From contig NC_089735.1 in NCBI RefSeq assembly GCF_035083965.1, positions 4,180,001-4,244,000 of the forward strand: DNA of 64,000 bases, given 5' to 3'. The stretch comes from Branchiostoma lanceolatum. Lineage: Eukaryota > Chordata > Leptocardii > Amphioxiformes > Branchiostomatidae. The translations under genes were made by a program, and so were the position numbers. The notes under the pieces were generated by a model. The model was not told where the DNA came from, did not search any database, and was given only the letters and a program-made list of their open reading frames with translations. Of the stretch, positions 15,185 through 57,500 are shown one piece after another (position 1 is the first letter of the stretch; each line of letters starts with the position of its first letter).

Positions 15185-18100
15185 TTACGGGATGGTCACG
15201 TACTGCGCCAAAAAGCCCGTGGCAGTGGTGCTACTGTCGCTGTAGAACACCACCTTCAGCGTGTTGCCGGTAGAAGTGGTCGGGGGCAGCTGTATGTTGC
15301 CGCAATGGCGACCTACCAGAGAATTGGGAAATACAAAAGGACACATTTTAGTGAACAATGTAGCATATTGTTCTTGTCCATTCTGTTAGATAGGATTGTC
15401 CACCTGACACGCTCGTTGTACTCCTTCAAAGCAAAAACTTGGAACTCCCTTGGGAACCCTTTTCTGTATAACTTCAGTAGTTGCCATGAGACAGAATTGT
15501 AGGCTTAGGTAAAACCTAAATAAGCTCTAGTTCATTTGTAAGTACTAAGAAATTCCATGGTGTTAAGAATCTTGTATTGCAATACATAACAATAACAATA
15601 CAATTGTGTTAAAATATTTTACGATATGAAGTAAATATGAATGTAGTTTTTAACCTAGTAACCTGTTGATTGTTTAACATATTGGTTGTATTTTTCACAA
15701 GGTTAACCATTAGTGATAGCTACCCGCTAATTGAGCAACCTTGGCTCACGTGTGTTCAAGCCAAACAAACAAACAAACAAACAAATAAAATAAAGAGTTG
15801 CGTGTATGGTTTACCAAGAGAAACGTCGTTCTCGAAGATTTCCACGTAGTCGTTGGACGTTGGACAGAGTCTTTCCGGTTCAAGGTCAAAGGCGGTGAAG
15901 ATGAGGTTGATCCTCATTCCATCCTCCACCTCGATCTACAAAGAAAAGCAAAATGCAAAATAAAATCATAGAAATGCAGATATTTGACGATCATGCAGCC
16001 ACTTCCTCATTGGTCAATTCTCTAATTATAAGGTAATCATTGGCTAAACTGCTAATTGTGATTGACATTTAGTATTGGTCTAATGTTTGCCACAATGGCC
16101 TCGTTTTCATTCTATCATGGCCGCCGCGTGAGAAAGGTCTAGCTGAATGTAAGAATCATGAATATTGAAGACTGGCCCATGCTTTTATATATTATATCGC
16201 AAAAGAAATGATTTCCAGCCCACCTCCCACTGGCACTGCGCGTTGTTGTCGTAGTTGTTGGGGAAGTTCATGCTGCTGAAGTTGCCGGTTGGATCAGTCA
16301 GCGACTCGGGACCGCCACAGCCAGACGCTAGGGAAGATATTGTTTTATTAGTACATGTATATAAACCGCGTAACAACAGAAAATCGGTCGAATAGCCGTC
16401 CTGCAAACATCGTGATAGTAAAGAAACCAACTTTATCACGGTGGTCCCGTATGCAATTTCTTTGCTGTTTCTGTATCATGGTATATTTTCAAAGGGAGAG
16501 GTTCCTAGCCCTTAATGCCTTCCCCCTTTAACGTGCGCGAGGCACCTCCACGTAAAAGGGACCCACATTTTGCGTTCCTTCCGGAAGACGGTGCAGCCCC
16601 AATCAAGATGTTCTGATCCCTGAACTTGAGCCGGGGTTTCCCAGTTACCGATTAATTGGAACCAGGAGCTCAACTATGAGGCTGCTACCGGTTGATCTAC
16701 ATGGACATCTCTTATGAAGCGAGAAGACAGCGGTACAGTCATGAGCAAAAGACGACCTCAACGTTAGCAATTATCGTGATTAAAGATTCCATGGAATAAC
16801 GTCTTACTCATTTCTTCATAGACCAATCGGAACGTTAGGATACTCCAGTCTTAAAAAGATATGGACAACAGAATTCTTTATACACAACCAGGTGTCTTAT
16901 TCACACCGACATTTCGGTGACCGTCTGTCACCTTCCTCAGGGCAATTATGACTGGTTCACATTGAACTGCAGCGATAGGTGTCGCTGCTTACAGATGCGG
17001 TCCCAATCGTTATTTAGAAGACATGATCTGGCTATCAAACTGTTGTAAACTCACGGTGAATGGGATGCTCGTCTGTAGTTGTGTAGACAAGAACGAAGCC
17101 GGTCTCAGTGACGCTTCTGTCGGTTCGGAACCTGACGGTCAGGATGTTGCCGTGAGAGTGGATCGGGGCCGGGATGCCGCTGCCGCAGAACTTACCGATC
17201 AGCTCCGCGCTGGTGTCGGGGCCGTCATACACGGCAACGTAGTCATAGCTGGGAATTGGATAAGTAGCGGTTAGAAACAGCGTAGGGCATTACGCATTAC
17301 ATAGGTATAAAAATTGCTTCCAACTCAAATAATATTTTTGACCGGATCTGCAATCTGCTTCAATGTTACTGACGCAAACGCCTTTGTAGGACTGAAATCA
17401 ACATCGCACTAATCTCCAAGCAGATCTACACGTTGCACCGAAAATCGTATATGCTAGCCAGATAAGCTCCAGTCAGCCAGATAAGCTCCTTTTCTGGCTG
17501 ACTGGAGCTTATCTGGGCTGAGAGGAGCTTATCTGGGCTGAGAGGAGCTTATCAGGCTGACTGGAGCTTATCTGGCTAGCGTATACGATTTTCGGTGCAC
17601 CGTGTAGATCTGCTTGGAGATTACATTGCACAACACATTGGGATAATTCATTCTCAAGAAGATATGTTTCTTTACATTTGTGACAAATTTCAACTCATTC
17701 CATACCAAAATGAACCAGCTATGGCACAAAAGGTGTTTTAGACCCCCCCTCGTACGTCAACTGTACATACGTACATGAAGGTCACGTGCCCAAACCGATC
17801 GGGGCAGTCATGGTGAAGAAGATTGGAGATTCGATCGGATGATGCTTTTTTGGCAAGACATCAGTCTTACCTGCAGGATGATCCGCCTCCTTCAAGGTCA
17901 AAGGCCGTGAAATCCAGCTCAATGTAAAAGCCTGTGGGTGCGCTGATGGTCCAGATACAGTCCATGTTGTCATCGTACGGAGGGCTGATGCTGCCAGTCG
18001 TCTCGTTCAGGAACCCTCCACACGTGGTCAGAGCGGTACCGCCTTCAGAAGAAAACAATACCATACCATTAGGCTCGCCCCTGAGGTCTCGCCAAAATAA

Positions 18101-20005
18101 GTAATCTAAGTTCTAGTACATCCGTAGAATATTTACAAATTCTTTTTAAATCTCATGCAGCATTCATTTTTGTTGTGAATTTCTCGCTAATTCTGTCCAT
18201 GCATTTTCTGCCTTCCTGTAGGACTTTTGATGCGGGCCAAACTAGTCTCCTGTTACACCATTTTCCTCCTCACACCCTGCCATCTTGGACTCGGGCCAAC
18301 GGGATCCAAGACAATAAGATACACACCAAGACAACGTTTTCCCGGAGGTGAAAAAGCAACGCTCAGCTCTATATATTTTGGAAAGTTGGCATACTTTCTT
18401 TAGGAGTCAAATAAAAATGTCAATGGTAATCAGCAGGACTTCAGTACCAACCATTGCAGTTCAGTTCGTCGCTGATGTCATTGCAGTCGTTGTCACCGTC
18501 ACAGACGTAGTCTTCATTGATGCAGTTGCCGTTGGCGCACCCAAACTGGCCGTCGCCACATCCTCCATCTGTGGAAATGTAAAAGTTATTATCATGAGGG
18601 CTACGTTGTAGGTGCCGCTTGGGGGTGGGTTTGTAGACAGCATAACTCGAGAAGTTGTAAATGGTTCTTGATGATATTTTGTATGTGGGTAGGAGTCGGC
18701 AAAATTAAAGCTTTTTCGAGCAGCTTTTTACGGTAATGGGGGAGAAAGGTAGTTTTGGCGACGCCTCAAAGACGGAGCCGTTAATGCAGTACTGCGATTG
18801 AGTTGCCAAATATTAAAAAATTGCCACGCAAGCATTTCCTAGGGAATTGGTTTTTGTTCATTCTGTTTCCTCATCCGTGTCATATAAGTCAATGGTAACC
18901 ATACTGTGAAATAGTCCGATTGACAGAAACACATTATTCCTGAGCGCCGAACATTTATTTTCGTACTCTAATGTACAGCGTTTAATTCCAGCTGTATCGA
19001 GTATGTGACAGAAAATATGGCAACACTCATGTGCGGAAATCAAAGATTTCACTCACTGGCGCAGTTCTGTTCGTCGCTCATGTCTCCACAGTCGTTGTCG
19101 CCATCGCAGATCCAGTTGTTGGGGATGCAGCCGTTGTTGGCGCACTCAAACTCGTCGAAAAAGCATAGTTGAGCTAAAACGGTGTCATACGCATGTCAAA
19201 TCTTAAGAATCTTGTTTAATCTTATTGTAGGTATCTGAACATCATTCAAAACTGTCGGCATTGCCTGAACAGAATACTGTACAACAGATTTGAGCTGTGT
19301 GCAGTGCCACGTTGTCCCTGTCTGTCCAAAAGCAAAATAAGTTTAAAAAAAAAACAGATTTGAGCGAGGCTACGACAGAACCTACAGAAGACAAGAATCT
19401 ACGCCAACCGTCACAAGACGGTTCATCCACGGCTGTCGCGAGAATACTCTACGATCGACGTCGTAGCTCGGTCGTACGATGTACGCAAGGGGGGCTTTGT
19501 CGGTCCCCTGAAAGTGCATGGTTGTGGGAGCTAGCGCACTGCCACTTACATGTATGTAATAATGTTATTCTTAAACCAAAAATATAACAGAAACAAATGA
19601 AACATCGCTGATGTTTTGCCAAATAATCTACTTGCAAACCGACCGATTAGCACAAAACAATTAAGCACGGAGTACATTATGAGCTTTTCATAATCCACCA
19701 CGGATACATTATCGAGGATTCCTTCGCAGATTTCTAGGAGCGCCGGCGTTGTTTTTCTGGGGGGGGGGGGGCACTGATTCGCGATTTTCCACATGGGCAG
19801 TGTACTGTAATGTCGTTGGAGATAGTTTTCGCACGCCTTGCTCCAAGGAGTCTGCGAAGGAGGCTACGTTAACGTAATAACGAACTTTATTAAGTTAAGA
19901 AAATATATTATTAGATAAATAAATGAGCTTGAAGAAAAGTGTCTTAGAGACTATCTTACCGGCTGCGGCTCCGATACAAAGCAACACTAGAGCGAACGTC
20001 TTCAT
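15185..20005 (-). CDS. Secreted LDLa-LDLa-CUB-CUB protein, paralog 3 (332 aa)
   Basis: The exons in transcript order are 20005-19960, 19173-19057, 18568-18452, 18042-17871, 17248-17055, 16327-16224, 15935-15815 and 15312-15185 (TAA). They give 333 codons with consistent phases. The leader is [15 protein letters not shown]. LDLa 1 is ECANNGC...[16 protein letters not shown]; LDLa 2 ends [19 protein letters not shown] 1 contains [21 protein letters not shown] 2 contains [12 protein letters not shown]. It has the same intron positions as paralog 1. The CUB exons are almost identical to paralog 2 (the 104-nt exon 16327-16224 is identical), while the LDLa exons differ strongly. It should be an extracellular, calcium-dependent binding protein; the ligand is unknown. 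The donor after LDLa 2 is a weak GTTGGT. A consensus TATA box lies 56 bp upstream. Confidence 0.88.
15762..15792 (+). repeat. (CAAA)n simple repeat
   Basis: About six CAAA units followed by AAATAAAATAAA, just downstream of the CUB 2b donor of paralog 3. Confidence 0.7.
16490..16705 (+). mobile_element. SINE-like repeat
   Basis: It contains TTTAACGTGCGCGAGGC (compare GAGCACGTTAAAGAACCC near 33075) and, near 16650-16700, a reversed tRNA-like head whose minus strand reads GATCAACCGGTAGCAGCC. It is non-coding and lies in an intron of paralog 3. Confidence 0.45.
16908..16940 (-). ncRNA. Hammerhead-like core, family A
   Basis: The minus strand reads CTGAGGA, then GGTGAC / GTCACC as a 6-bp helix around a short loop, then GAAATGTCGG. 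Positions match CUGANGA - helix II - GAAA. Decayed copies are at 8692 and 34940 (plus). It is embedded in a dispersed repeat ending in AATAAGACACCTGGTTG. Confidence 0.4.
17411..17623. mobile_element. CTCCAAGCAG foldback element, copy 1
   Basis: The ends AATCTCCAAGCAGATCTACA and complement are near perfect; the arms continue through CGTATATGCTAGCCAG. The interior has five repeats of CTGGAGCTTATCTGG type. The flanks CATCGCACT and CATTGCACA share 7 of 9 bases. It is a close homolog of 29254-29414. Confidence 0.8.
19715..19865. mobile_element. TIR element related to 8862-9215, in intron 1 of paralog 3
   Basis: CCTTCGCAGATTTCTAGG at the left and GTCTGCGAAGGAGGCT at the right are inverted. The flanks ACATTATCG and ACGTTAACG agree at 7 of 9 positions. 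The interior has a run of 12 G. Confidence 0.6.
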
Positions 20006-20060
20006 CTTGTACGGTTCACCTGTGTGTCTGAGAAATTCAAGGAGGTGTGATCTTGGTATC

Positions 20061-20901: not shown

Positions 20902-21053
20902 TACTCTCCAAGCAGAGGTTGGTGGGGGGGAAGGGGGAAAGATTGTCACCTTTGTATCCTGTGCCCCGTTTTCTGGTTGGGAGAGCCAACATAAAACGGG
21001 GCACAGGATAAAAAGGTGACAATCCCCCCCTCCCAACCTCTGCTTGGAGAGTA
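20902..21053. mobile_element. CTCCAAGCAG foldback element, copy 2
   Basis: TACTCTCCAAGCAGAGGTTG and complement form the ends. The arms include ATCCTGTGCCCCGTTTT and its complement. Exact 9-bp duplication ATGCCAAAC at 20893-20901 and 21054-21062. Confidence 0.88.
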
Positions 21054-23569: not shown

Positions 23570-23846
23570 TAGCCTCCGTTGCAGGCTTCTCCCACCGGCG
23601 ATTTTTCAACTTATCGGACCAGATTCTTTGGGTGGGGGGCAGTATCTGCTTGGAGACCGTATCTGCTTGAGGCCCCGTATCTGCTTGGGATCCTGTTCCA
23701 CACGGCGGTTACAGGATCCCAAGCAGATACGGGGCCTCAAGCTGATACTGTCTCCAAACAGATACGCCCCCCCCCCCCAGACAAAGAATCTGGTCCGATA
23801 TTAAAGTTGAAAAATCGCCGGTGGGAGAAGCCTGCAACGGAGGCTA
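23570..23846. mobile_element. Foldback element with 10-bp target duplication
   Basis: Arms of about 60 bp or more (TAGCCTCCGTTGCAGGCTTC... and complement) continue inward through repeated ATCTGCTTGG motifs. The flanks are CTTTTTGGGG on both sides (23560-23569, 23847-23856), exact. A truncated relative without the right half lies at about 25477. Confidence 0.85.
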
Positions 23847-24105
23847 CTTTTTGGGGTGGAAATGGACGAAGATTGAAGCGGCGCGGGTGTCATCCATATG
23901 CTAGTAATCAAATCAACATGGCCTAACGTACATGTAGCGTTCCAGTTATCGTGCGGTACCAATCATGGTCCACTTCGGGTCATGTCCACGTGTCGAGGTG
24001 TATCATGCTAAAGTCAGTTCTCATGGGCAATGAAGAACGACATAAGTATGATTCGTAGTCACGAGTCTCCTTTATACAAACAATAGAATAGGTTTGCATC
24101 AAGCG

Positions 24106-24578
24106 TAGGGGTGGGTACCGGTACCGTGTACCGGTACAAAACCGGTATTTCTTAATGGACCGGTCCAAAAAAACCGGTCCGTAAAAAATCAGTGGACCGG
24201 CCTATGGACCGATTAGAAAATTCATAGTACCAGGCTACAAGTAGGCGGCCACATAACTGGTCTAAGAAAATACAAAACAGCAGATTTAACGAATCGAAGA
24301 CGTTAGCTGTGAATCATATCTAGAAACACTTAAAGGATGAGTAAACAGACGGCGTGGAGAGCATAGTTATATTTTTGAGACAAAGTGCAAACCTAAGAAA
24401 TTATATCGTTCCTGACATGACGTTTATTTGGAGACTTTTACGTGTGTCTCGCTCTCCAAAATATGATGTACTGCGACACTTCTATAATCAGGTACAGGTA
24501 CAGGTCCGGACCTGGACCTGACCCTCTGGACCTGGACCTGGACCGGACCTGAATGTTATGTACCGGTACCCACCCCTA
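24106..24578. mobile_element. Non-autonomous hAT-like element (473 bp)
   Basis: The inverted ends are TAGGGGTGGGTACCGGTAC and GTACCGGTACCCACCCCTA. The flanks ATCAAGCG (24098-24105) and ATCCAGCG (24579-24586) are an 8-bp duplication with one mismatch, as expected for hAT. The empty site is seen at about 23140 (GCACCCAGCGACAC). Subterminal CCGGTCC / GGACCTGG motifs are repeated many times. Confidence 0.85.
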
Positions 24579-25883: not shown

Positions 25884-25889
25884 CATCAT

Positions 25890-27600: not shown

Positions 27601-27624
27601 ACGCGTAACAGGTGCCTCCAATGC

Positions 27625-28026: not shown

Positions 28027-31000
28027 ATGAAGGGAGCACTGTTGGTCGGTGTTCTTGTTGTACTGTGTGGGCTTGTCGCCCCGCAACATGAAGGTCACGA
28101 TCATGAACATGGAGAAGACCCTTTCAACGCCGTTCTACGCCTACTGGGAGGAGACGAACACCAGAACTTGACGTTCGACATGTCCAAGGTGCTGGTGAAG
28201 ACGATGTTGGACCGGGTACGGTGCATAAGACTGGAGGCCGACGAAGAAAGGAATTTCACTTGTGACGAGGTAGGAAGGACATGTATTTTCCACTTGATGG
28301 GTTGCACGAACTTGTATGAAACCAGAATGGACTTACTTGATTAACTTATATGGATGTTATGAATGAAAACAGGAAAACAAATGTAAGGATGAAGGATTTA
28401 GTACACATGTAATATTAGTACACATGTAATATTAGTTGAAATAAAAACAACATGCACAATCGTACATGTACAATCGGCATTTGAATATCTGTGAATACAC
28501 ATGTATCCGTATTAATCTAAAAAGGGAGGAAGAAGTTTAATTTTTGCAACAGGTACACTTTATGGCAACTTGAACATACATTGTAGTTGAACTTTTGCTA
28601 ATACATGTATCTAATCATTTTTAAGAACTAATCTACTTTATGAATAACGGACAATCTATCTATGCATGCTAAATTCTCTAGAACATTATGCTGCGTCAGG
28701 AACGTATAACAAGGAACAGGTTTAGGACATCGTTGTAAAGTTTTAAAGGGAGAATTATGAGTCAGATTTAAACAAAGATAAGTCATGTCACTCATGTCTG
28801 GCTGGTGTGTAATTTGCATAAAGTTGGTATGCGGGAACGTGGCAATGAATAGTATATGAAAACGCTATTTGCTTTATCAGCTATCCATTATGCACAAACT
28901 GTCAATTATAATGGGCAACGTCCGTCCTTGAAGTGCCCAAATGTCTGAAATATCCAGGTTACTATATGGTTGTTGATTGCAAAGGGCGATAACTATTGCA
29001 ATGATTTACCACAACTATACCTCCGCCAGGGACCAAGCAAACAAGCTACTTAAATCATCTTTTGTATCATTGTCTCAAAGAGACAAGGTATGGTTACAAT
29101 CATACAGAGTAAACATGGTAAAATGTAACGTTTACCCAACCAAGGTCATTGCTTACGTAAATCTAACAGAAGTGCGCTACTTGTTTGTAGTTCTGTACAA
29201 ACGTGTCAAGAATTATGCTTGTCGAGCATTATTGGACCCATGGTGAATAACATAATCTCCAAGCAGATTTACACGGGGCGCTGAAAATCGTATATGCTAG
29301 CCAGAGAAGCTCCAGTCAGCCCCGTAGGCTAGCTGGAGCTTATCTGGCTGACTGGAGCTTCTATGGCTAGCATATACGATTTTCAGCGCCCCGTGTAGAT
29401 CTGCTTGGAGATTAGAATGACATGCCATGTTTCATGTTGCACAGCACAGAAGTGTGTGTGTGTGTGGGGGGGGGGGGGGCAGAAAAGAGAGAAACGTTAG
29501 AAAATAGAAATCTTTTATTGACATAACAAAAGTACAGCGACTTTCGAAAGGTCATCTACAACTATACATACAAACAAGTGGATTGTAATGAACTAATCTA
29601 CGTACAAGTATATGAATGAATCAACATGTTGAGTCTGGCGTATCACTTATACTACTAGTTCTAAGTTCTATACATTCTTTGATATATTTCTTTATTGTAC
29701 ACAGTAAGGGTTATCTCCTCCTAGAATCTTCTTCAAAGATAGAATGTACTTGCACTTATCTATAGGATGGGATGTATCAAATTCTGTTGAGCAACCGGAA
29801 TGGATAGCGACAAATTTACCATGACTGGCAGGCGAACAAGAATAGGGGGCGCAGGGGGTACATAAATACACGAGAGTTGACAACAATACAAACGTACGCT
29901 CTCATTTAAAGGGCAATCAACAAAGGTATCGATGTGTAATTCTCATGACCATTTTTTAAATCTCAGTGCAAGGTTCTTGTACATATGGAATATTCTCCTT
30001 GGAGACTCCTTCTGATCACTTCTAGCTAAGTTTATTCTTTTAAGTTCGTTTCATTCAGACCCTTGTTATGCCTTGCCTAGTGGCACATATAGTGCAACTG
30101 TGAGGCTGTTGCCAGTTGATAGGGACATACCTTTATGCATGGTTAACAATAGATTTAAAAAAACACCTCCCCGCGCATAGAAATCGATAGGCTTTGTTGA
30201 AGGGCTACATATTCTCCAAGCAGAGGATTCGGTCTTGGGGCTAGTAGTGGTCGCGATTTTTAACGTCTCCCTCCCCTAGTTCAGGCGTTCAAAATCGCGG
30301 CCACGGCCAAGCCCCCGGACCAAAACTTCTGCTTGGAGCATAGAGTCTACACAGATATCCTCAAGGGAAACAGATAAACAAATAAACAAACAATAACATA
30401 AAAAACATTGTCATTTCACAGTGTCTGACGGCCGATGGCTTGATTAAGCTGTCTCTTGGCGACTCGACCGACACAAGCGTGCCCGTAGGTGAGGAAGACT
30501 TTCACAAGATGGCCGTGGTGCTGACTGTCTTTCTGACGGACCTGTCTGCGCATGACGTCTGCACCGAAGACCCTGGCGGCAAGGGCTATACGGCAATGGA
30601 GGGCAGGCTAATGTCGTACACACACGCTAAGTTTACTCTCCGCAGCTACCAACAGGTCTTGGAAGACATCAACAAAAACTATCGAGTGGAGAACTGGGGC
30701 AAGGTAAGATCACGAAACGAGACAAAAATGCATGCTGTATTGTTAGCCTCTGTGGTACTATATCCCAATACAAATAAACAAAGAAAAAATGATAATCATA
30801 TTTCATTGGTACTAGTAGGTTTCTATTTGGTTGCCAATATATAACTACGGTGGCCCGATTGTGTCAATTACACAAATGACTGTCGCCTACGCAAATGACT
30901 GTGTCGTCAACGCACTTTACATTAGCCCAAATGTCTTTGTTGTCTACGCAAATGACTGTGTCGTCTACGCAAACGACTGTGTCGTTTAATTTCGCAAATG

Positions 31001-34000
31001 TCGGTGTCGCTTACGCAAGGAGGTTTAAACCTCCTAGGTTTACGCAACTGAACTGACTGTTGTCTTCGCAAATAACTGTATCGTCTACGCACAGAAGTGT
31101 TCGCAGACGACGCAGTCATTTGCGTACACGACACAGACATCTGTGTAGATGACACAGTCGTTTGCGTACACGACAAAATAGGGGAAATGGGCTACCGTAG
31201 TTTAGTTAGTGCTGGTTGTGAAACAAGAAATCGAAGATCTCATGCTTCCATGAGAGATTCATATTGTGAATTTCCGAATGCCACAGCACTAGTCTTATGC
31301 TATAACAGTTGATGCTAAATCTGGGAAATGGGCCACGTACTACTAAACTACGTCGGACAGTGTTTCACTGCAGAGTCGGTGTTTGAGGAGCTCCACATCA
31401 ATACCAGTGAGGCTAGCGGAGGGGCGTCCTACGACGAGCTGAAGGAGATAGCAGCAATAACCGTGGCCAACGTGCTGGAGGGGCTGTGTATAGGGGTTGC
31501 CGAGCTACCGGAGAAAAGCTTCTTCGTAGACAGTCTTTTCGAAAGTCTCAACGTAACCAACGGCACCATCACAGTCGAGGGTGTGTCATTTTGAGTTCAT
31601 TTTGATAGATTAGACTGCAGGTCATAGAGCACTTACTACCATGCCTTAATCATAATTAGCCACCCAAAAATCAAGACCACATCACGTCCAGGTCAAAAGA
31701 TATAAAAATATACAAAAGTTCTGCTGCAGTACCAAGGTCACATACCAGGGGGCCCAAAATCGACCTTGAATTTTGGCTTCACAACACCCGCCCACATACT
31801 AAATATCATTGTAATTCATGAAGAGGCTCCTGAGTTATGCTGACTGGAGTGGTGTGGAAACACAAACAAACAGACAAACAGACAGACAAACAGACACACC
31901 CAAAACTATATCTCTATTTTTCATGGAGATAATAAGGTATTGACGGATCATTGATCCCGAAGAAGGCGACAGTGGTCGTTGGAAATTTGATCCGTGAATA
32001 CCTTAGTGTTGGAAGAAAGTTTAGCATTGTATTATGATTACTACCAACCCAGATAAGCCTCCATGATGATAAAAAGTGTTCATGTGATTATTATCTATCA
32101 TGTCTGCATCGCAGCCCTTGAGCACGTCCTGTCGGTGTTGGGTGTCGGTGGGGAGGCCCCGCCGGAGCCGGAGGTGGACGACGGGCACGATCACGACGAC
32201 CACGCCGGGCACGACCATAGACGGAGACGCCAACTGCCACCGCTGACACGGGCAGACGAACACGACCACGACCACGACCACGCCCACGACTTCGAACACA
32301 CTGTGAGTACGACTGTTCTTTTTGTCTTTACAGTATTAGGGCCCTGTTACACTTGTGCGTATATTCAAGTGCGCGTGAGTTGCGCATTAACATTTTTTTG
32401 GGGTTAAGTAAGGTTTTCGTGGAAAAGTTGTTTTCTACTTTGATCCACCGTTGTGCAGCCTGCCCGTTATCGAACCAAAGAAATTACTTCTTCGGCTGCA
32501 AACTTAACCAAAACCAAAAACATGTTGATACGCAACTCATGCGGACTTGTATATACGCACAAGTGTGACAGGAGCTTTACGCGGCACAACGCCTCTACTC
32601 TCCAAGCAGAGGATTGGGTCCGGCATATAGTGAGGAAATAGGCGTTTTTACCAAGGGCACAACGCACGGAGCTTCTTGGATACGCTTACTAGAGGTATGT
32701 TGTACTCTCCAAGCAAAGGAGTGGATCCGGCTGGTTTTTGACGTGTTTTAGGCGTTTTGTCGGGCTTCCTACATTGTCTCGATTTCTTTTTGTCACCCAC
32801 CCACCCACACACAAAAAAAAGAGACAAAGTAGAAAGCCCCCCAAAAAACGCCTAAAACACGTCAAAAACCAGCCGGATCCACTCCTTTGCTTAGAGAGTA
32901 CAACATACCTCTAGTAAGCGTATCCAAGAAGCTCCGTGCGTTGTGCCCTTGGTAAAAACGCCCATTTCCTCACTATATGCTCAGGGGTGATATGAGTACC
33001 TAGGACGTCCTCTCGGATATGTCATGTAAAGCCAGAGCTCCTTTGTTAGATAGAGGAGAGCCACGCCTCGAGCACGTTAAAGAACCCACCACACTTATTG
33101 ATCTTGATGGGAGTGAATCAAGCCTATCTAACGCCACTTGTACTTAACGTACAAAACTGGTATATTGCGGGTCAAGGCCGCTATACCAGTTATACGATAC
33201 AACCAACCAACCAACCAACCAACCAACCAACCAACCAACCGACCGACCAACCAACTAAATGATCGACTAACTAACTAACTAACCAACCAACCAACTAACT
33301 GATTGATTGACTAACTAACCAACTAACTAACCAACCAACCAAACAACTAACGAACAAGAAACAGGAATCACTAATAACGTAATAATACCTTTACGCAGTG
33401 CTTTAATTCAGCCCAGCTGATGAAACTGTTCCTGGTTGAGGCGGAGATGGGGGTGACCCGTGCCCAGTTCAGCGCCATGGCGCCCGCCCTCCTACAGCAG
33501 GTCTACAGCAGCGTCTGTGTAGGGGAAACGCCGACTGTGAACGCAACGGCCGCTCCGGTGGTCAGAGAACTCACTATGCTGGAAAGTAAGTTGACAGAGA
33601 TGGATCATCATAGATTGTCGCAATGTATCTCAGTCCAGTTCAGCGCAACTTCGTTTGCTTCCCGCAGGTCCGAGTCTGTGCAGGTAGGTGAGAGTCTGCA
33701 GCTGTTCATCAGGTGTTGCAGGGGTTTGGGGGTCCTCGCCGCAGCCGCAGGCTGCACTGCTGATCTTCCCCCACCGTAGCAGGTTGTCCCCTGTCACAGA
33801 GATGGATTAGAACCTGCGACCCATAGATTTCTAGGCCATCCCTTTACCAGTTGAGCTAACAGGGCATTTGGAATACACAATGCAGTTATCCAAACAAATA
33901 CCTACATAGCCTGCCAATAACACTTTGCACTATTGACAGGGAACAGCCTTAGCCATAATCAAGTAAAACTTGTTACCTTCGCCAAAAGGTTATGTTTTCG

Positions 34001-39790: not shown

Positions 39791-41470
39791 GGTGACGTCA
39801 CGTCCGGTGCCGAGGGTATGGTGTTTGCGCTCACGTGACTATGACGTAGTCCGCCATGCTGGATGATCAAACCAAGTAGATTTGAATCTGTATATATAAT
39901 CATGACATTATTCCAATCGAAGTTTAAAGCCTAATTCTTACAGGAACATCAAACCAGGATGGAGGCTGTGATGTCACGTGCAAACGCCTTATTGGAAAAA
40001 AGATACTATCTTTAATTCTCAAGTAAAACAACTTAAACCTCACAATTTGAAACATCTTGCTCTGTTAATGTGGCTGTTGCTTGGAAGTTGCAGTAATGGA
40101 ATCAAATACAAATGTAAGTAAATTGTGCACAGTAATCGTACAGTTTCAACTATCGTGCTACATGTCGCTTGCCATTGCACTATTTCGTTTCCTGTGTTAT
40201 GATGACTTTGATTATCGTATTTTTTGGTCTTTGTGTGCTGCCAGATGTATCTGTGACAAGTATGTAGTACCCTTATTCGACTCTGTTCTCGCAAATATCA
40301 AGCAGGAGTTTCTTATATCTACTCACTGGAACAAATTGTCTTTTCACTTGATATATGATGTATATAGTTCTATTTCACAGTACGCAGATACAAAATTTCT
40401 ATATTATTTTTGGCACAATTGGTTGACACATTTTGTGTATTCTACTACAGACCTACTAGTGTAAAGGAATTGTTCACACATGGGTTTAGATACTTCCACT
40501 AATGTTGACTTGTCTACGTTTTGGGCTTTAGCTTGACGATGAATAAATGATATTGCTTTTGTCGCATTTTGATGAATGTCTTGGTTTCGAACTAAAGAAT
40601 ATTTATTTTCTCTCGCAAAATCTGCTTGGAGAACAATTCTCATGTTCCAGATCGAAGTAAAGAAAGTATATTCCACAGGGTTCCAGACAAGCTACCAGAT
40701 ACACTCAGAAAGCAAAGAATGGTAATTATTTGCCTTAATGCTTATTTTGGCAATAATGGGGTAATAATGCATCACTGAACAATCAACACATGGGAAGCGA
40801 CCACCTGTTAAACCGCATGCAGACCTGACGGAAAGAGGTCAAGGACCGTTGCGGTCAGAAACAAACTTACGGGAGCTAAGGAAGCTTGCAGCGAATCGGA
40901 CAAAGTGGAAAGGACTGAAGGAAGACTGAATGCGGCTGCAGGATGTTTCCACTACTGTAGCAGCAGAAAACAGTGGACTACTACTACCATGCACTGGATA
41001 TAAATAACTGGCTCAGCCTTACTCCTCCAATTGACGGCGAATTAGTGTACATGGTCTAATGCATGTATATCCTTGTTTCATAGTAGCTCATTTGCAAAAT
41101 GGTCATACAAAACGTCACAATCACATGCATGCTGACTCTCAAAAAACAACCCTGCAGGAGGCTGTGGCCACTGCAAACGATGGAGTCATGACACATAACA
41201 AACAAGCACGTCAGGAAGTTTGGCTATACCAACGGAAAGCATGCAAAAAAAAATTGAATATGTAACCATGTTACTTTGCGAAGCGAAGGTTATTTAAACA
41301 TAAAATTCCACCACACAAGCCTAAGGAGTGCTATGGACAGGCTAGTAAGTTAAGTGCCCCCATGCCTTAACTAAGAAACTCTTCAAATTCCATGACCAGG
41401 ATGCCAATATCAGTTGTAGTTGCCAATGATGTACACTTTATGGTATTCAGCTTAAAATAATCAATGTGAT
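39791..41470. other. 3' flank of the zinc transporter
   Basis: AT-rich. A possible AATAAA on plus is at 40542-40547, far from the stop. The open frame 40081-40464 has no homology that I recognise and no splice or domain support. TCTGCTTGGAGAA at about 40620 is a lone foldback end. Confidence 0.35.
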
Positions 41471-41471
41471 C

Positions 41472-45545: not shown

Positions 45546-48500
45546 CTATACCGCAGAAACTTGTTCGTCCTCTTCATCTGAAACACATAAGGACACGCAC
45601 TTGAGAAAAATGTATACAATGATTTTCAATGGCATTTGATGGTACAGAAACAGATGCTATGAGACCTACATGTATTGCGGTAGGTAGTTTTCGAGTTTTT
45701 TCTTAGAACAAGCACGTCAAAATTACTGTACACAGCAGAAAGACAACACACTTTTCATTGACATTCAAATACACAAGATAAAGGATATTTTTTCTTATTC
45801 TTCTCCATTAACTAGAATTCCAAACCATTCCTATTTTAGAAACTTTTTAGAAATTTTCTAAAAAATTTTTTTTTTGGAAAATAAAAATCTGTTAACCAAG
45901 AAATTAAATTGGTGTGGCCTTAGCTGAGATTTTTTTTAAAAGTGAATTGCTGTCACAGAAAAATGTTTTTTGTTTTTTTCTAAATGAGCTTGACAAATTT
46001 TTCTTGCGAGGAATAAGCAACAATTCCCTTGTTGTTATGTAGGATTTGTATCTTAAGTTTCTACCAGCTTTTCTAGCCTCCTACAGAATACACCACACGT
46101 TTCTGGAACTACAAACACAACCATGCAATGATGAGGAAAGAATACAACACAACCAGTGTTCCACCACTGCCTACCACCGTGCCCTGTGGGACAGTCCAAT
46201 ATCACCCCTTGTTTTCTATTTGAGAGATCCCACCAGTGTCTTTTGTCAGTACTCTCCAAGCAGAGGTTAGGCTCCGGCAAGTTTTTGACGTCTTTTTAGG
46301 CATTTTCATTGGGCTGGCGGACATAGAGGTAGCCGGAAAAAATATAAAGCCGAACAAAATGGCCTAAAAAGACGGCAAAAACTAGCCGGAGCCTAACATA
46401 TGCTTTGAGTGTTTTGTCTGTAATAATTTCTTTTGTTTGACAATAGTTGTGTACAGTCACTGGGCAAAAATGCTACAAATTTGCTTTCATTTACTATTTT
46501 AAAAATACTTTTGGGCTGCAGTACAGTTGAAGAGAAATAGAGTTTTAAAGGAGAATTTTATCAAAAACTGCATCCAGAATACATTAAGAACATGAACAAC
46601 AGTGGTAAAACTTAGGATTTATTTTCAATACAGCTACTCATGAAAATTGAGGCAGGATCTCTAAAATATTTCAAAAGCAGTGCTTTCTTACTGAGAGAGT
46701 TAGTAAGAAATACCAAACCAGCTTAGTGTCCATGCATTTCAACAGACAGTGTCTTCGATACTGGACTATCCCTTGTTATAAGCTATAGCCCCAACTTTGA
46801 ACATTTGTTAGCAGTACCGGTTACGGAAGACTAGGGATATACAACTACAACGGATGGCACTGCAACCCCCTGAACACACGACAGCTGTGATTCAAGGAAA
46901 CAACGTACAAACTTTTTTATTGCACTCTCCCCTGACACTGGAGCAAGCATCCTTATACCACTGTGTGCATGACAGAACAGAGATCTGTTAAAAATGATTT
47001 AGAACAGCATGTTGGAGAGAATGCTGGATCATGGCATCTGCTTTCTCTCACGCCAGAGTCTTCCCGCAGCCTTAAGCCAGAGTTATCGACTTCGGCAAAC
47101 CAACTGCTCAAAGTGAATATCGAGCCGTCTTGCTTATAGATGTTAATGAGCTTGCCTTATTTAGCACAAGCCAATCAGCGCGCAGATTACAGTGACTTCC
47201 AATATGGCGGACATACAACATGCGTCAGGGCTAGCGAAGAAAACATGATAATAATTTCTTTGCATATTCGGTCAGTATTCAGTGATACCATGATTGCCCT
47301 TTACCAACAGATCTGACAGATTTTCAATTTGGTACCTGATAAACAAACAGAAAGTACCATCCAATGTTAAGAGCTGTTTATCTTGGTATGAAGATCAAAG
47401 AGTTTGCCTTATTTGGGACCTGAAGACAATTTTTAGGCAATTCTCTGATTGGCTCAGCTAGTTAGTGACCATGCCCCCAATAATCACTAGAGCGGTTTGC
47501 CATAGTCGATACAAGCCTAATGTACGTGAAAGGTTGCGGGGCGACTCTAGTGTGAGAGAGAGGGCATCTGGAATTACAGCACAAATGTAAGTGCCTCATG
47601 AACATTATATAATGATACCCTCCACCAGCATAGAAACACCAGCATTATTCTCTCTACACTAAAAATGACTGGTTATATGGATGCACCTTACACCATATGA
47701 AAACTACTATGCGATAGGATAGGAAAAAGCAGAGAGTCAATTCTTTGACAGCAACATCACAATATATTTCCATACCAAAATCCCACATTAAAATAGTCTT
47801 ATGACCTCCCTTGGGCAATTACTTACAGTGAAGCAAATACTGCCCATTAGATAGCAAAGGGCAGTGGTTCAACACACATAGAGGACTTGAGCCTGAATGG
47901 TTGTTCAATGTGATACATGTATATGTATATGTATAACCAGCTTTCGCTGTGTATGCATAAAGTTGCAGGGCCGATTTTCTCTCTCTGACAGTCAGTCTAG
48001 TACAGACTAAGACACAGTAATGCACAAAGAGATAGCTTCAAGGCCGTTATACAAGTTGATTAATATACAGACACAAAAGCAGTCGCAGCCCCACTCACCA
48101 TCCTCTATTTCAAAGTCGAAGTCTTCGGGATCCTCGGGAGCCATGTGGCTGACGGAGGTCCGAGGCATGGTGTAGGGGTCGGGGTATGACGGCAGCCTCG
48201 CTCTGGGACTGAGGGGGTCAGGATGTACAGGCACTTGGGAGGGGTCAAACGGGTCAGGGGTCACATGGTGGACAGCAACCTGTGCTATTCTGGGGTCGTA
48301 GGTGAGAGTGGTGGTGGGCTGTCTTGGTGGAGGAGGGGGAGGTCTTTTTTCATAGGGTGGGGGTTGGGTTGGCCTGTGGGAGGGGGGTCGATAGGCCGGG
48401 GGAGGTGCATTTGATGCAGAAGGGGATGGAGGTTGTCTGGCGGTTGGTGAGTTCACGTGTGGTCTGCTGCTAGGGGAGGAGGGGGCGGGTAAGCTGTAGG

Positions 48501-51500
48501 AGGGGGACAGAGGGGGGTGGCCAGAGGGGAGGGGGTACGGAGGCTGTCTACCCGACGGGGAGGTGGGTGGATACTGCTTACTGACAGGAGAGCCAGACTG
48601 TTTTGATAAGGGAGATGACGGAAAGTACTTGTTAGTGGGGGTAGAGAGAGGAGAGTTGGTATTGGAGGGGGTTGGAGGCTGTCTGGACTTAGGGGAAGAG
48701 ACATAGGTAGGTTGTCTGGTGTCAGGGGCTGGGTGGGGAGGGTGCCTGATGTCAGGGGGTGGGGGCAAAGGTCGAGGGTCAGGAGTAGGAGGGAGAGGTC
48801 GGGTGGGCTTACTGCTAGCATTTGGGAGAGAAAGAGGAGCGGGGTATCTGCTATCATGCTCTGCAAGAGAAGAAAGCGTTAAGTGTTAAACAAGAACAAA
48901 GTTTAACATAGATTTAAAAGCACAACACCTCTACTTTGGTAACATGCACAAGAAAGCATTACTGAGTGAAACTGTTTCAAGTTAAAAACACATAAACTTT
49001 TCCAATACATTTTAGTCAGTTTAATCAAGGGTGATAGAACCTCCTTGTTTTAATTTACAAAGCATTCAAGCATGCCTGTAACTATTTTGTGAGACCTAAT
49101 GTTGAGACAGGGTTTCCTTGATGTTGCATTTAAAAGGGCGGAAGAGGGTACAGCTGAGGGTTCAACAAATGGACATCTTCTTGTAAAAAGTGACATCAGT
49201 AATATGAAGGGAGCAAGCTTAGTTTTAAGGAGCCCCCGGGAGGAGAATTCATAAATCCTTGACACATTAGCCCCTGAAAACCTGTCGAAATCGGACTCAA
49301 GTAAAACGGAAGAACTTAAATGATTAACTTTGGGGCGTATTTAACACAGTATAATTTGCTTTTCAATTTTACGTTTTGCTTTCCTTTAACTTACCATCTT
49401 TGTCTGCCGTCGGGTTGTCTGCTGTTGAGTAGTACATAGGAGGCACTGACATGGTGGCCTGAACAGGGGGGTTCCTTCTGGGGAGAGGGGGGGATCCCGA
49501 CCCCTGTGACGAGGGGTTGGAGCTGCTGCTGGAGGGGGGTCTGCTTCTGACCGAGGGGGGCGAGTTGGATCCCGAGTCCACAGAGGCGGGCCGACTTCTT
49601 CTCTTCTCCTGCGGTGAACTTGAGCCTGTAATTGATAATGACTGTAAGTTAGATCAGGCATGAAGTGACAATGAACTCCCTTATGGCATACTCTTACTTT
49701 AGTTTGCTCCTTTTTAGAGTGGCTCAAGACTTAACCAAGTCTTTCAGAGAGCCATTTTTGTGTCATGTTGAGGTGTATAACATACTGTGATAGCACATAT
49801 ACGTAAATTAGGCAAGATACAAAACATGTATACTATGCATTACACAAGAAGTACTGAATTACTCAAGAGTACAGAATTCGTTATCAAACAAATTCTGGGT
49901 TATCAAACAAATTCTCCCGAATAGATTGGTATAATGGAGAAAAATATCCAAAAGAACACAGAGGATGAGTTTGCCTTTATCATACAAACATCTGAGAAAC
50001 ACAAAACATGCAGGAATGCCATGCATTGGGGATACAACACTGTTGAACATGTATTAGGTCACCCCGACCAATCAAACCACGTGAAACGCATTGAAACTCA
50101 GATTCGTATCAGCCATGTCCCGACAAATCGCCAGTGAGATGGTGGAAGGTTTCAGCTTCCAAAATATGTTTTCAGATTGACAATTTTGCCACTTTGGAAG
50201 TGATTGAATCCGCCCGCGATTTAACGTTTAAAAAAAAAAGAAGTTCCTACTACCTTTCTCTAAACGTTAAATCGCGGGCAGATTCAATCACTTCCAAAGT
50301 GTCAAAATTGTCAATCTGAAAACATCTTTTGGAAGCTGAAACCTTCCACCATCTCACTGGCGAGTTTGTTTGGTCAGATGTAGTCGTTAACGCAAGTTAG
50401 AAAGCGATTTGTCGGGTCATGGCTGATCATACGAATCTGAGTTTCAATGCGTTTCACCTGGTTTGATTGGTCATGGTGTAGGTACAACACATTGTTCGGA
50501 AGGCCATGGTGCTTGGTACATGTACACGTAGGTTGAGCAGTCTTGATAAATCTGTAACTGATTAATTTTAGGTCCCCCTAGCTGCTTCTTTTGCAAAAGC
50601 AAAAGCTTCATTTGAAGAGGTAGGTGGTTATATACATGAATGTTTCTTTGAGATCAACGAATTGCCCTTTGTCATCCTAGATAGCATGCCATCAAAGTAT
50701 GCAGAACAATGGGAAAATGGATGTAGGTGTAGGACACCGAAATGTTTGAAATACTGGTGAGAGACACTTCCCAATTTTCAAAGATATCGTGCTGAAAGTG
50801 TTACATGTTAACTTGTCACTACATGTCATGAGTAATGTCAATACTTTATTTTGCAAGATGGGATGATATCTATATTTGTCACAGCATCGTAGAGCTGTAA
50901 AGATGATTGACATGAAATAGCTGTTAGGGAATTCAAGTTTCTAATGTCCGTCTAATTCAAGAGAGTTTTGTAATGTAATTGCCATACATTCGACTGTAAC
51001 TGTATAGTAAGAGGTGTGGGATGCTGGACACTTCGGCCCTTTAACAACTCGGCCCATGGTTAATAAGACAAACTCGGCCTTACACCCTGGTCAACTCGCC
51101 TCAACACCCTAACCCTATCATATACCCTAACCCAATTTTCCAAGTAGAGGTTTTGGTCGGGTGGGTAGTAGTGGCCGGGGCGGGGGGAAGGGAGGCCAGC
51201 GTAAAAAACCCCGGCCACTACTACCCCACCCGACCAAAACCTCTGCTTGGAGAATATCCTAACCCAGGCAGAGTTGACCAGGGTGTTGGGCCGAGTTGAT
51301 CAGGTTGATGGGCGGCTGAGTTGGTCTCTCACTGGACCTGTGGCACGTTGGTAACCTTGCTGCGGCCGAGCGATTTGACAAAGCACTCAAAGAATGTCAT
51401 CAATAAAAAACAATTCTTTTTCGCTTTGTGTGCTTTGTTGTCTTTTTAGTTATACTTGTACATTTTGCATGATATTCCCATTATCAAGTCAAGGGTAATA

Positions 51501-54500: not shown

Positions 54501-57500
54501 AGTTCAAAGAAAGCCATACCAGTGGAGAGAGATTTTCTCAGATGGTTGCTGTTGAGCGGGATGTCTGTGTCGACACTGTGGCCTCGTCTGACTCGCTGTG
54601 CCTCTGTTCTCCTTCTGCAAAATTATCAAAATGCTAAGAGTTAAGCTACATGTCGTAAAGCCATAGCCGAAAGTTCTGATGCAGTACCAAGGTCGGCCAC
54701 CAGGAGACCCAAAATCGACATTGACTGCCGGGTCCACAACAACTAGCCATATACCAAATATAATCACAATCCATCCAGACTTTTGTAAGATATTGCAATG
54801 GATACGTACACACATATGCACGCACACAGACAAACAGACCGAAAATTATACCTCCACTTTTCATGGAGGTAACAAAACAAAGTGCGCAATTGTTACTAGC
54901 CAGGACCTACATCATTACATACTGTACGTGTAGTATCTACATATCTACAATTATTATAGTGCTAAAGATATTGCAACGGATACGTACGTACATATGCACG
55001 CACACAGACAAACAGACCAAAAACTATACCTCCACTTTTCATGGAGGTAACAACACTGACCTCATCCCAGGACTTCTGCGGAGCCTCGGTGAATGAGAGG
55101 GAGAAACGGCAGGGGAGTTGTCCACCGAGTGTCTGTGTTGCATCATCTTGTTCCCTTTCCTGGCAGCCTCCTCCGACAGAGACAGGAGCTTCTTCAGGGC
55201 TGTGGGTGACTCTGCACCTGTGAAACACAGGTGGGGGGTACACAGGTTTGGAAGGCTGTTACTTTGCGTCACGTGTACATGTCTTGTACTCCACTTGAAA
55301 CTTCATCTGTGTTGGAAATGGTTATTCTGAATCAAAGTTGAACTGTAAATGCCTTCATGAAAATTTTAGACTCACCCAAATTTTCAACTGATCAACTTTA
55401 GTCTATGTCAAGGAATGGGCAATCCACTGAACGTGACCCCACAGAAGCAGTCGATTGCTCATTCCTTCATAAAGATCGGAGTTGATCAGCCGAAAAATTG
55501 GGTAACTACAACTTTTTATGTTGCCATTTACAGTTATCGGCTCTTGTAAATAAGAATACACAGTTCAATAACTTTCAGTCCTTTTACTTGTGTCCAGTAG
55601 GTTTGGGTTTCCACTGCATTGGTTAATTTGCTGACTTGTGAGCAGGATGGTTTGCTAGATGCTTGTATGTAATGATGATGATGGTTTGCTCTTGAATAAG
55701 GTTACTAAAAAGTTAGGGGTTAAGGTTATCAAACAGCCAATGTTGCTTTAATATTGTGGAGCAAAGCAGCTGCTATCCATAAGCGTCAATATCAAATCTG
55801 ACCTGGGATTTTGTAAGAAAGAAAAACGAAACTGCTCTGGACTCTAGTAAGGAAACTTGCATACGTCTACTGCAGAAGAATGCAATAATGTAACACCTGT
55901 TACATAAAGTTTGAAAAGACACTAACATTCCCACGATCCATATAACATTAAGTCAAATGTTACTATTGTAACTTATCATTTTGAGAGAAATTGCACTTGA
56001 AATCGATACAATTTCCCAAATTGTCAGTGTCTTTCCAACTGTGAAGTAACAAGCGTTATTCTGGTTAAAACGTAAAATATAGAGTTCAGCATTTAACACA
56101 AAAGCAGCCATGCCTATGCAAGCACTTTCTGTTAGAGCATTAGTGTCTGCACTTAAGTGGTCATCTCACTGGTCCCATGGCACAACGGCAACATCACTAA
56201 TCTCCAAGCAGATCTATAGGTTGCTAAGACCGTATCAAACTGGCAGAGGAAGTACGTTTTGCTATACAAGCTCCTTCTTCCAGTTGGATACGGTCTTTGC
56301 AATCCATTGGGCCTGCTTGGAGACTAAACATCACTGCGACAGAGCAATTTGAGCCCTCAACAGATCTTCCTACACTTGTATGTTTTGTTGTTTTTAGTCA
56401 TACTTTTACATTTTGCATGATATTCCCATTGTAAAGTCAAGAGTAATCTTATCTATCAGGTCACAGCGAGGTTGCCAAACCAGTGAGATACCTAATTTTG
56501 GGCCTGCAAGAGCATGAGTGCTTGTGCGTTAATTTGAGAAGGTGCACAAAAATGTGATGAGGTGTAAAGCTTTCCGTCAGCCAGTTGAAGAGGGAACACC
56601 ACACCAACTAAAACAAAGGAAATCAGCAAACCCAACACACAAAGTAGCTGTCTCATCCTAAAGGGATAATGAATCGTAAATAAAATAAAATAAAAAATAA
56701 AAAAAAAGCAAAAAAGCAGGAAAGTAGTTGCCAAGCCTTGAGCCCTGAATCAAACTAACCATGCAATTTTAATAAGTTCCGCCCTGATTGGTCATCAGTC
56801 CTGGGCTCTTCCAGACCTGTCAAAATTAAGTCATCTTTGTCATACATAGAGTCTCATGTAATGTTGCGAACACCTGCATCCTTTGTCAGTCATTGCACAA
56901 TTGTGAATAGCCAGGACCTACATCATTACATTCCCCCAGGAATCGTTGAAAAACACCGCCAGGCAATACTGTATTCCTGGTTAAACAAATAAACAAACAT
57001 ACTGTACATGTACTATCTACATATCTACAATTATTATAGCAAGCCTTTTTCAATCAAGTTTGACTTTAGCTGCGTCTTTATGTCGAGCTAATAATGTTAC
57101 ATCTGTTGTGTGGCATCTTGTCATTAGACCAATTTTAATAATCTATTTAATAAGACCATTAGACCAACCGCTGACATTATATGAACATAATCAAAGTGGG
57201 AAAATAGGGCTTTAATTTGAGTCAATCTTACAGAGAATGCCTTAAAGGTTAAACTACTAACTTAGGCTATTATAATTACGGGGTGCAGTGTTTGGCCTTA
57301 CCGAATCTTGGCCCTGGTGGATGGTGTCTTCTTTGCTGCGCAGCGAGGGTGCGGCGCTGGGTGGTATGGCTTGGTGGGACTGTGAGAAGAGAGTTGGACT
57401 TTGGTCCTTCTGGCACGGTGTTGCGCCTCTTCACCGCGGCAGAACTTGTCGGGGCTACGGTAGGGAAGAGAATGGCAAGGGAAGATGTGAATGCGATTTT

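What the first reader, a model, noticed from the sequence alone, without database searches (positions are those of the whole stretch)
17411..56335. A foldback family with one shared end, changing interiors and 9-bp duplications
At least seven elements (17411, 20902, 29254, 30211, 46251, 51135, 56199, plus the double one at 32596-32981) end in CTCCAAGCAG and are near-perfect hairpins, yet their interiors are mostly unrelated. Target duplications are 9 bp: exact for ATGCCAAAC, CCTAACCCA and AACATCACT, and 7-8 of 9 for three others. Elements with TAGCC ends (1808, 8862, 23570) also give 9-10 bp. A 9-bp duplication fits Mutator-like transposases (established knowledge). Near-identical arms around unrelated cores suggest that new hairpins form repeatedly from captured or copied sequence.
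Basis: partly seen in the sequence, partly recalled or inferred. Interest (0 to 1): 0.72.

Follow-up and report, generated by a model that had tools for sequence, protein, structure and literature searches.

The report
Hairpin transposons sharing one end
Several short hairpin-shaped jumping-DNA pieces in this animal genome share the same end but differ inside, apparently because the two halves of a hairpin are recopied from one another; this is a new family of a known kind of mobile DNA.

Summary
The window is animal genomic DNA. Eight CTCCAAGCAG elements (full end TANTCTCCAAGCAG) and three TAGCC elements are palindromic or long-TIR insertions. Nine of ten testable elements carry flanking duplications better than all 90 flank swaps. 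Paralogous host-repeat copies lacking the element lie in the window for A8, B1 and, less cleanly, B3. The duplications are 8-10 bp rather than strictly 9; in the TAATCTCC subfamily 8 bp fits as well as 9.

The interiors are not mostly unrelated: 17410/29253 (weakly 56198), 30210/51134 and 32703/46250 are related; 20902 stands alone. Between relatives, the two arms of one element have changed together. The 32596 element shows copying best: an inverted copy runs 80 bp past its inner ends. Capture of outside DNA is shown once, in the TAGCC element at 8862, whose core is a perfect 169-bp copy of 6836-7004. No CTCCAAGCAG element shows capture in this window.

I read them as non-autonomous foldback/MITE elements, most likely moved by a MULE-type transposase. 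That class is inferred from duplication length only; no transposase was found and no genome is held. New member of a known kind.

The parts
17410..17623 (.). A1, hairpin element, alpha subfamily, ends TAATCTCCAAGCAGATCTACACG; extra tandem units in the right half
   Evidence: duplication ACATCGCAC/ACATTGCAC 8/9 (or 7/8 with symmetric ends)
20902..21053 (.). A2, hairpin element, delta (alone), ends TACTCTCCAAGCAGAGGTT
   Evidence: duplication ATGCCAAAC 9/9 with symmetric ends
29253..29414 (.). A3, hairpin element, alpha subfamily, related in interior to A1
   Evidence: duplication GAATAACAT/GAATGACAT 8/9 (or 7/8 with symmetric ends)
30210..30342 (.). A4, hairpin element, beta subfamily, related in interior to A7
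   Evidence: duplication weak (6/9 in register, by eye)
32596..32984 (.). A5, composite hairpin: outer end on the left only (32596-32622), 80-bp spacer, inner gamma element 32703-32900, inverted spacer; arms 32623-32764 and 32839-32980 are 138/142 identical. The right limit is not determined
   Evidence: folds at -192.5 kcal/mol, z -42; no duplication found
40615..40635 (-). Lone family-A end (TGTTCTCCAAGCAGATTTTGC), no partner arm seen
46250..46412 (.). A6, hairpin element, gamma subfamily, right end decayed
   Evidence: duplication TTTTGTCAG/TTTTGTCTG 8/9, boundary uncertain
51134..51256 (.). A7, hairpin element, beta subfamily, left end decayed, inside an older inverted repeat 51066-51327
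   Evidence: CCTAACCCA 9/9 shifted, 8/9 in symmetric register
56198..56326 (.). A8, hairpin element, distant alpha subfamily
   Evidence: AACATCAC 8/8 or AACATCACT 9/9; paralogous empty sites at 51322-51378 and 13244-13308
1808..1915 (.). B1, TAGCC-ended hairpin element
   Evidence: AAGCATTAC 9/9; paralogous empty site at 10502-10590 (-)
8862..9215 (.). B2, TAGCC-ended element, 44-bp perfect TIRs, core not palindromic
   Evidence: AAACTCACG 9/9
9000..9168 (+). Core of B2 acquired from elsewhere: 169-bp perfect copy of 6836-7004
6836..7004 (+). Source-type locus of the B2 core, in and beside a SINE-like repeat that continues to about 7229
23570..23846 (.). B3, TAGCC-ended hairpin element; partial duplicate at 25474-25516
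   Evidence: CTTTTTGGGG 10/10; paralogous copy of the host repeat without the element at 36969-37065 (-), with a 4-bp gap at the junction

Best explanation
These are non-autonomous palindromic DNA transposons (MITE/foldback class) in two end-families, moved in trans by a cut-and-paste transposase making 8-10 bp target duplications, most likely of the Mutator-like (MULE) superfamily. The outer 20-27 bp are held constant because the transposase binds them. The rest is free to change, but it changes symmetrically because one arm is recopied from the other, by template switching in the hairpin or by repair across the palindrome. Mutations and indels therefore spread to both arms, and subfamilies drift apart behind a common end. 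Sometimes the copied tract overruns the old boundary and makes a longer hairpin with a new interior, as in A5. Shown here: insertion, shared ends, subfamilies, symmetric divergence, the A5 inverted copy. Inferred: the transposase class, binding at the ends, and which repair route recopies the arms.
For: Insertion: duplications in 9 of 10 testable elements beat all 90 flank swaps; joined flanks of 3 of 11 elements (B1, A8, B3) align across the junction to other copies of their host repeats. Shared ends: scored with a profile built only from the other elements, 13 of 17 ends score 17.6 or more, above the best site in any of 15 shuffled windows (16.3); the four that do not are the right ends of A5i, A6 and A8 and the left end of A7. 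Symmetric divergence: columns where both arms of one element agree but differ from both arms of its relative number 4 (A1/A3), 4-5 (A4/A7) and 10-12 (A5i/A6), against 0, 1 and 0-1 columns of the pattern expected if each side kept its own history; simulated independent arms give means of 0.02-0.85, largest 6. A5: the inner element's flanks are 80-bp inverted copies of each other (79/80) rather than target duplications, and arms of 142 bp are 138/142 identical although the inner part is only 73-80% like A6. Template switching is reported to create and repair stems (PMC8794818, abstract and start of the introduction seen) and to homogenise inverted-repeat arms (PMC8604942, abstract start in the search listing). 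All 14 MULE families of Aedes aegypti are said to have 8-9 bp duplications, and their derivatives shared ends and heterogeneous interiors (PMC5225508, passages).
Against: No transposase or autonomous copy: 145 ORFs (of 843 of 40 aa or more outside the microsatellite) gave only host domains and two weak matches that I take as chance in Pfam. Duplication length alone does not fix the superfamily; Merlin (8-9, recalled) and hAT (8, recalled) overlap part of it, and in family A only A2 shows 9 bp with clearly symmetric intact ends. For A4/A7 the simulated maximum (4) equals one of the two observed counts, and single-arm or other irregular columns (24 of 59-60) far outnumber symmetric ones. Seven of the 12 A5i/A6 columns (43 and 48-61) adjoin a shared T-run indel and are fewer events than columns. 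Symmetric differences could have arisen in palindromic master copies rather than in these copies. A5 has no target duplication. Only 11 elements in one window were studied.
Confidence: 0.6

Rival explanations
1. Capture: interiors are pieces of host or other repeat DNA picked up between the conserved ends, as in Pack-MULEs, and then made into hairpins.
For: B2 carries a 169-bp perfect copy of 6836-7004, cut off inside a repeat that continues at the source and at 57.5 kb. The A5 spacer has no match elsewhere in the window at E 0.01. Cross-subfamily interiors are not significantly alike.
Against: None of the eight A elements has an interior match outside the elements at E 0.01 (this window only). 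Six of eight A interiors, or seven with A8, have a relative among the other A elements. B2, the one clear capture, is not a hairpin.
Confidence: 0.2
2. Ordinary MITE subfamilies: each subfamily is a deletion derivative of a different long-TIR autonomous element, and the arms look alike simply because each founder was a fresh palindrome; no continuing recopying.
For: Subfamilies exist. Single-arm changes are common (4-7 columns in A1/A3, 19-20 in A4/A7, 5-8 in A5i/A6), as expected after insertion.
Against: Symmetric differences inside one subfamily still need recopying in the founder line. A5's inverted flanks are not explained by insertion.
Confidence: 0.3
3. Same kind of element, but another superfamily (Merlin, hAT or P-like) rather than MULE.
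For: The alpha subfamily reads as 8-bp duplications with symmetric ends (A8 8/8, A1 and A3 7/8). The ends begin TA, which is not a MULE hallmark as far as I recall.
Against: B1, B2 and A2 have exact 9 bp with symmetric ends, B1 also against a paralogous empty site, and B3 has 10.
Confidence: 0.3
4. The hairpins are not transposons but local inverted duplications made by replication errors.
For: A5 shows that inverted duplication happens, and most of the 41 inverted repeats in the window have no clear duplication.
Against: Shared ends at dispersed sites, target duplications and paralogous empty sites.
Confidence: 0.03

Closest known systems
Tm1, Mutator/Foldback family of root-knot nematodes (PMC3169594, passages seen)
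   Same: Foldback-like inverted ends, MITE-like members, 8-10 (mostly 9) bp duplications in 45 of 53 complete elements, arms 93% identical on average; its authors suggest that some copies acquired host sequence.
   Different: Tm1 has tandem-repeat TIRs and one copy encoding a Phantom-type MULE transposase; end motifs differ; here no coding copy is known and elements are 108-389 bp.
Muta families of Aedes aegypti (PMC5225508, passages seen)
   Same: 8-9 bp duplications, both lengths within one family; non-autonomous derivatives with the same ends and heterogeneous interiors including host fragments.
   Different: Autonomous copies known; mostly long TIRs with subterminal tandem repeats; not described as whole-length palindromes in the passages seen.
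Galileo of Drosophila (PMC3573991, passages and part 1 of the Discussion seen)
   Same: Arms kept alike within a copy; proposed copying of one TIR onto the other with a tract that overruns into the interior, as A5 looks.
   Different: P-element superfamily, 7-bp duplications, two-TIR copies of 1.7-2.2 kb on average.
Tetris/DAIBAM foldback elements of Drosophila virilis (PMC4079207, passages seen)
   Same: Non-autonomous foldback with 8-10 bp duplications, assigned to Mutator on duplication length and analogy; DAIBAM, a MITE, shares only the final portions of the TIRs.
   Different: Much longer (TIRs up to 1,735 bp), with 220-bp tandem units.
LanceleTn MITEs of amphioxus (recalled; paper not held)
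   Same: Possibly the same kind of host; not compared.
   Different: Not tested: no sequence was available.

Membership tests
Non-autonomous DNA transposon (MITE/foldback class) | Terminal inverted repeats bounded by target-site duplications | tested here: met
   9 of 10 testable elements (A4 fails, A5 not testable)
Non-autonomous DNA transposon (MITE/foldback class) | Empty target site exists | tested here: met
   Paralogous copies of the host repeat without the element for A8, B1 and, with a gap at the junction, B3 (3 of 11)
Non-autonomous DNA transposon (MITE/foldback class) | High copy number in the genome | not testable with these tools
   No whole genome is held
Foldback (FB-like) element | Inverted repeats make up most of the element | tested here: met
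   A elements, B1 and B3 are palindromic over most of their length (five elements folded); B2 is not (44-bp TIRs)
Mutator-like element (MULE) | MULE (DDE) transposase in an autonomous copy with the same ends | tested here: inconclusive
   None in 145 ORFs of the window; genome not available
Mutator-like element (MULE) | 8-11 bp, mostly 9 bp, target duplications | tested here: met
   8-10 bp; register ambiguous for A1, A3, A8
Mutator-like element (MULE) | Ability to carry captured sequence (Pack-MULE) | tested here: met
   B2 only; not a defining feature on its own
hAT | 8-bp duplications throughout (length recalled) | tested here: not met
   A2, B1, B2 9/9 and B3 10/10; for family A this rests mainly on A2, since A1, A3 and A8 also read as 8
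Merlin | 8-9 bp duplications and a Merlin transposase (recalled) | tested here: inconclusive
   Length fits except B3; no transposase seen

The most novel reading that the evidence does not exclude
The palindrome is the engine of renewal. Hairpin recopying between arms, with occasional overrun into neighbouring DNA, keeps generating new symmetric interiors behind a fixed transposase-binding end, so one family continually founds new non-autonomous subfamilies without needing gene capture. A5 would be an intermediate in which a half-element plus 80 bp of flank was turned into a new 142-bp arm.
Probability: 0.3. Interest if true: 0.55.

Novelty: new member of a known kind. Interest (0 to 1): 0.35.

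Why it matters
How MITE families keep identical ends while their interiors change is usually explained by deletion or capture (from general knowledge). These elements suggest that symmetric recopying within the hairpin contributes, and they give a countable signature: columns where both arms agree within an element and differ between relatives. The idea itself (TIR exchange in Galileo, template switching in stems) is already in print, so the gain is an accessible test case rather than a new principle.

Tried and rejected
Genome-wide test: not possible, no genome held. Collection scans for copies elsewhere: zero in viral contigs for four patterns; three in genome contigs, rejected as chance because none carries a second exact end, an inverted repeat at the site or any similarity to the window at E 0.001 (stretches of L001 and L002 also read by eye). 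Relationship between the A and B ends (both TANNCTCC...GCAGA): unproven, shuffle p = 0.26. B3's internal CTCCAAGCAG copies as nested A elements: rejected, the site scores 6.5 where each of 20 shuffled windows has 6-25 sites above 6. That same scan counts 31 sites above 6 in the real window, known ends included, so I did not use it to claim further copies. Rfam at gathering threshold and the tRNA scan: nothing.

Papers: the end sequences were searched as text (one plant paper in the listing, not opened; the 10-mer in 246 papers, 40 listed, none opened, unrelated by title). Amphioxus/Branchiostoma searches listed 0, 9 and 3 papers; none looked to be about such elements by title or abstract start, and none was opened. 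The listing was likewise not opened beyond Tm1. Species: I suspect a lancelet from recall, but no call supports this.

Beta-gamma interior similarity (TTTTTRACGTCT) looks suggestive (p 0.013-0.037 in three comparisons) but does not survive 128 comparisons. The A1/A8 and A3/A8 symmetric counts (20 each) rest on a weak alignment and are not used.
Full report
WHAT THE WINDOW IS. No whole genome is held for it. Stop-to-stop ORFs match CUB and LDL-receptor-A domains (about 1-20 kb), a ZIP zinc transporter (about 28-40 kb) and a RasGEF domain (about 61-62 kb, minus strand) (positions of unlabelled hits judged from the translations). It is animal genomic DNA; the species was not determined.

THE OBSERVATION. 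CTCCAAGCAG occurs 15 times exactly, and 23 times with up to one mismatch against 3.27 expected for the latter. The full end is TANTCTCCAAGCAG. I count eight family-A elements: A1 17410-17623, A2 20902-21053, A3 29253-29414, A4 30210-30342, A5 32596-32984 (composite, right limit undetermined), A6 46250-46412, A7 51134-51256, A8 56198-56326, plus a lone end at 40635 (-). Family B (TAGCC ends) has B1 1808-1915, B2 8862-9215, B3 23570-23846. All but B2 are palindromes over most of their length. The five that I folded as single strands (A4, A7, A8, B1, A5) lie 9 to 42 standard deviations below shuffled sequence. Scored with a profile from the other elements only, 13 of 17 ends exceed the best site in 15 shuffled windows; the right ends of A5i, A6 and A8 and the left end of A7 do not, and are placed by pairing with their partner arm.

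TARGET DUPLICATIONS. With both ends set by the conserved terminus: A2 ATGCCAAAC 9/9, B1 AAGCATTAC 9/9, B2 AAACTCACG 9/9, B3 CTTTTTGGGG 10/10, A8 AACATCAC 8/8, A1 CATCGCAC/CATTGCAC 7/8, A3 GAATAACA/GAATGACA 7/8. A7 gives CCTAACCCA 9/9 with shifted ends or 8/9 in register, but its left flank already repeats CCCTAACCC. A6 gives 8/9 with an uncertain right boundary. A4 gives 6/9. A5 has none that I could find by eye. Scored mechanically, 9 of 10 elements (A5 left out; A7 with misplaced boundaries) beat all 90 swaps of left and right flanks, whose best score was 5; A4 is the exception with 4. Of 41 inverted repeats in the window, 11 have a duplication with p below 0.03: eight are elements of these families, three are not (725, 10389, 59718).

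EMPTY SITES. Joining flanks after removing one duplication copy and searching the window gave five junction-spanning matches, from 3 of 11 elements. B1 against 10502-10590 (-) is gapless at the junction with 9 bp removed, with a 5-bp gap four bases beyond it; a second B1 match at 59095-59149 is weak (E 0.055) and was not followed. A8 against 51322-51378 and 13244-13308 is gapless with 8 bp removed; the same joined sequence results from 9 bp if the T is counted to the target, so this does not separate 8 from 9. B3 against 36969-37065 (-) aligns across the site, but with a 4-bp gap (GGGG) right at the junction, so it shows the absence of the element rather than the exact length. These are paralogous repeat copies, 71-76% alike, not alleles.

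INTERIORS. Whole-element comparison pairs A1 with A3 and more weakly A8, A4 with A7, and the inner A5 element with A6; A2 matches others only in and near its ends. Beyond the first 27 bp, 11 of 128 arm comparisons reach p below 0.01, all inside the pairs A1/A3, A4/A7 and A5i/A6; A8's link to A1 and A3 is not significant there; beta-gamma similarity is suggestive only. Family-A interiors have no match elsewhere in the window at E 0.01.

ARMS CHANGE TOGETHER. In four-arm alignments I counted columns where both arms of one element agree and differ from both arms of its relative (symmetric), and columns where arms match across elements instead. A1/A3 4 and 0, A1/A8 20 and 0, A3/A8 20 and 0, A4/A7 4 and 1, A5i/A6 10 and 0; the A8 rows rest on a weak alignment and I do not lean on them. 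One search, with 60 and 75 nt of arm: A1/A3 4 and 0; A4/A7 4-5 and 1; A5i/A6 12 and 0-1. Columns with a change in one arm only, or otherwise irregular, number 4-8, 24 and 9-21. Simulated independent change from a shared palindrome gives 0.02-0.85 symmetric columns on average and at most 6; for A4/A7 the simulated maximum of 4 equals the lower observed count. In A5i/A6, columns 43 and 48-61 (7 of 12) lie around a shared T-run indel, so the number of events is smaller than 12. Symmetry has thus been re-imposed after mutation, in these copies or in their founders; A4/A7 alone would be weak evidence.

THE COMPOSITE ELEMENT A5. From left to right: a 27-bp outer end, an 80-bp spacer, an inner gamma element 32703-32900, then the spacer inverted (79/80), ending exactly where the outer end would begin. 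Arms 32623-32764 and 32839-32980 agree at 138 of 142 positions. The inner element is flanked by inverted copies of the spacer (GGTATGTTG / CAACATACC), not by a direct duplication. An insertion exactly in the centre of a palindrome without duplicating its target is unlikely; an inverted copy of a half-element with its flank is the simpler account. Galileo authors describe one TIR being copied onto the other with a tract that runs into the interior (PMC3573991, passages).

CAPTURE, IN FAMILY B. The core of B2 (9000-9168) is a perfect 169-bp copy of 6836-7004. From 6908 to 7229 and 57563 to 57880 the surrounding repeat continues past the point where B2 stops, into what I recognise from recall as a reversed tRNA-like promoter, so B2 holds a truncated fragment; whether its donor was this locus or an identical copy elsewhere is open. 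This is Pack-MULE-like acquisition by an element with 44-bp TIRs and a 9-bp duplication.

MECHANISM. Shown: insertion, common ends, subfamilies, symmetric change, one inverted over-copy, one capture. Inferred: a transposase acting in trans on the outer 20-27 bp; recopying by template switching or palindrome repair, for which published work gives precedent (PMC8794818, abstract and start of introduction; PMC8604942, listing). The MULE assignment rests on duplication length and on analogy with Tm1, Muta and Tetris (PMC3169594, PMC5225508, PMC4079207, passages). Muta1 is reported to make both 8- and 9-bp duplications, which would absorb the ambiguity seen here. No transposase turned up in 145 ORFs of the window.

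VERDICT. A real and coherent set of foldback MITEs, a new member of a known kind, with a good example of hairpin recopying. The claim that captured sequence repeatedly makes new hairpins is not supported for the CTCCAAGCAG family in this window.

Noticed in passing
22000-25650: Dense mosaic of inverted and direct duplications built of TAGCCTGGAGTCCAGCC-type units (arms up to 204 nt at 91%); roughly 23470-23614 recurs at roughly 25375-25516 with part of one B3 arm.
   Followed up: partly
6908-7229 and 57563-57880 (minus strand): Two copies of a repeat with a tRNA-like head by recall (TTCGAACCC box at 57.8 kb), possibly a SINE; ARAGORN called no tRNA.
   Followed up: partly
13236-13308, 35839-36093, 51322-51557, 56168-56350: A repeat with CTCTCACTGGACC or close variants recurs at several places, some in inverted pairs; it is the host of A8.
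   Followed up: partly
4714-4957, 9735-10318, 32343-32572: Inverted-repeat elements with GGGCC/AGGCC..ACACTT-type ends, resembling PIF/Harbinger MITEs by recall.
   Followed up: no
7921-8243: A 323-nt palindrome, 88% symmetric over its whole length, without a convincing target duplication (7/8 off-register, p 0.09).
   Followed up: no
38696-38790 and 10389-10473: TAGCC/TAGTC-ended hairpins without a clean 9-bp duplication (10389 has 8/9 off-register).
   Followed up: partly
19716-19868: Probable decayed TAGCC element: GGATTCCTTCGCAGA on the left, GGAGTCTGCGAAGGAGGCTA on the right, duplication at best 6/9 by eye.
   Followed up: partly
8966-8991: Inside B2, a small palindrome CGCTGTTCATTTCCAAATGAACAGCG repeats part of B2's own TIR (ATGAACAGCG), perhaps another template-switch trace.
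   Followed up: no
59718-59955: Inverted repeat with exact direct copies of AGGCACAGA near its ends, left arm starting CAGAGGGCGACAG; family not identified.
   Followed up: no
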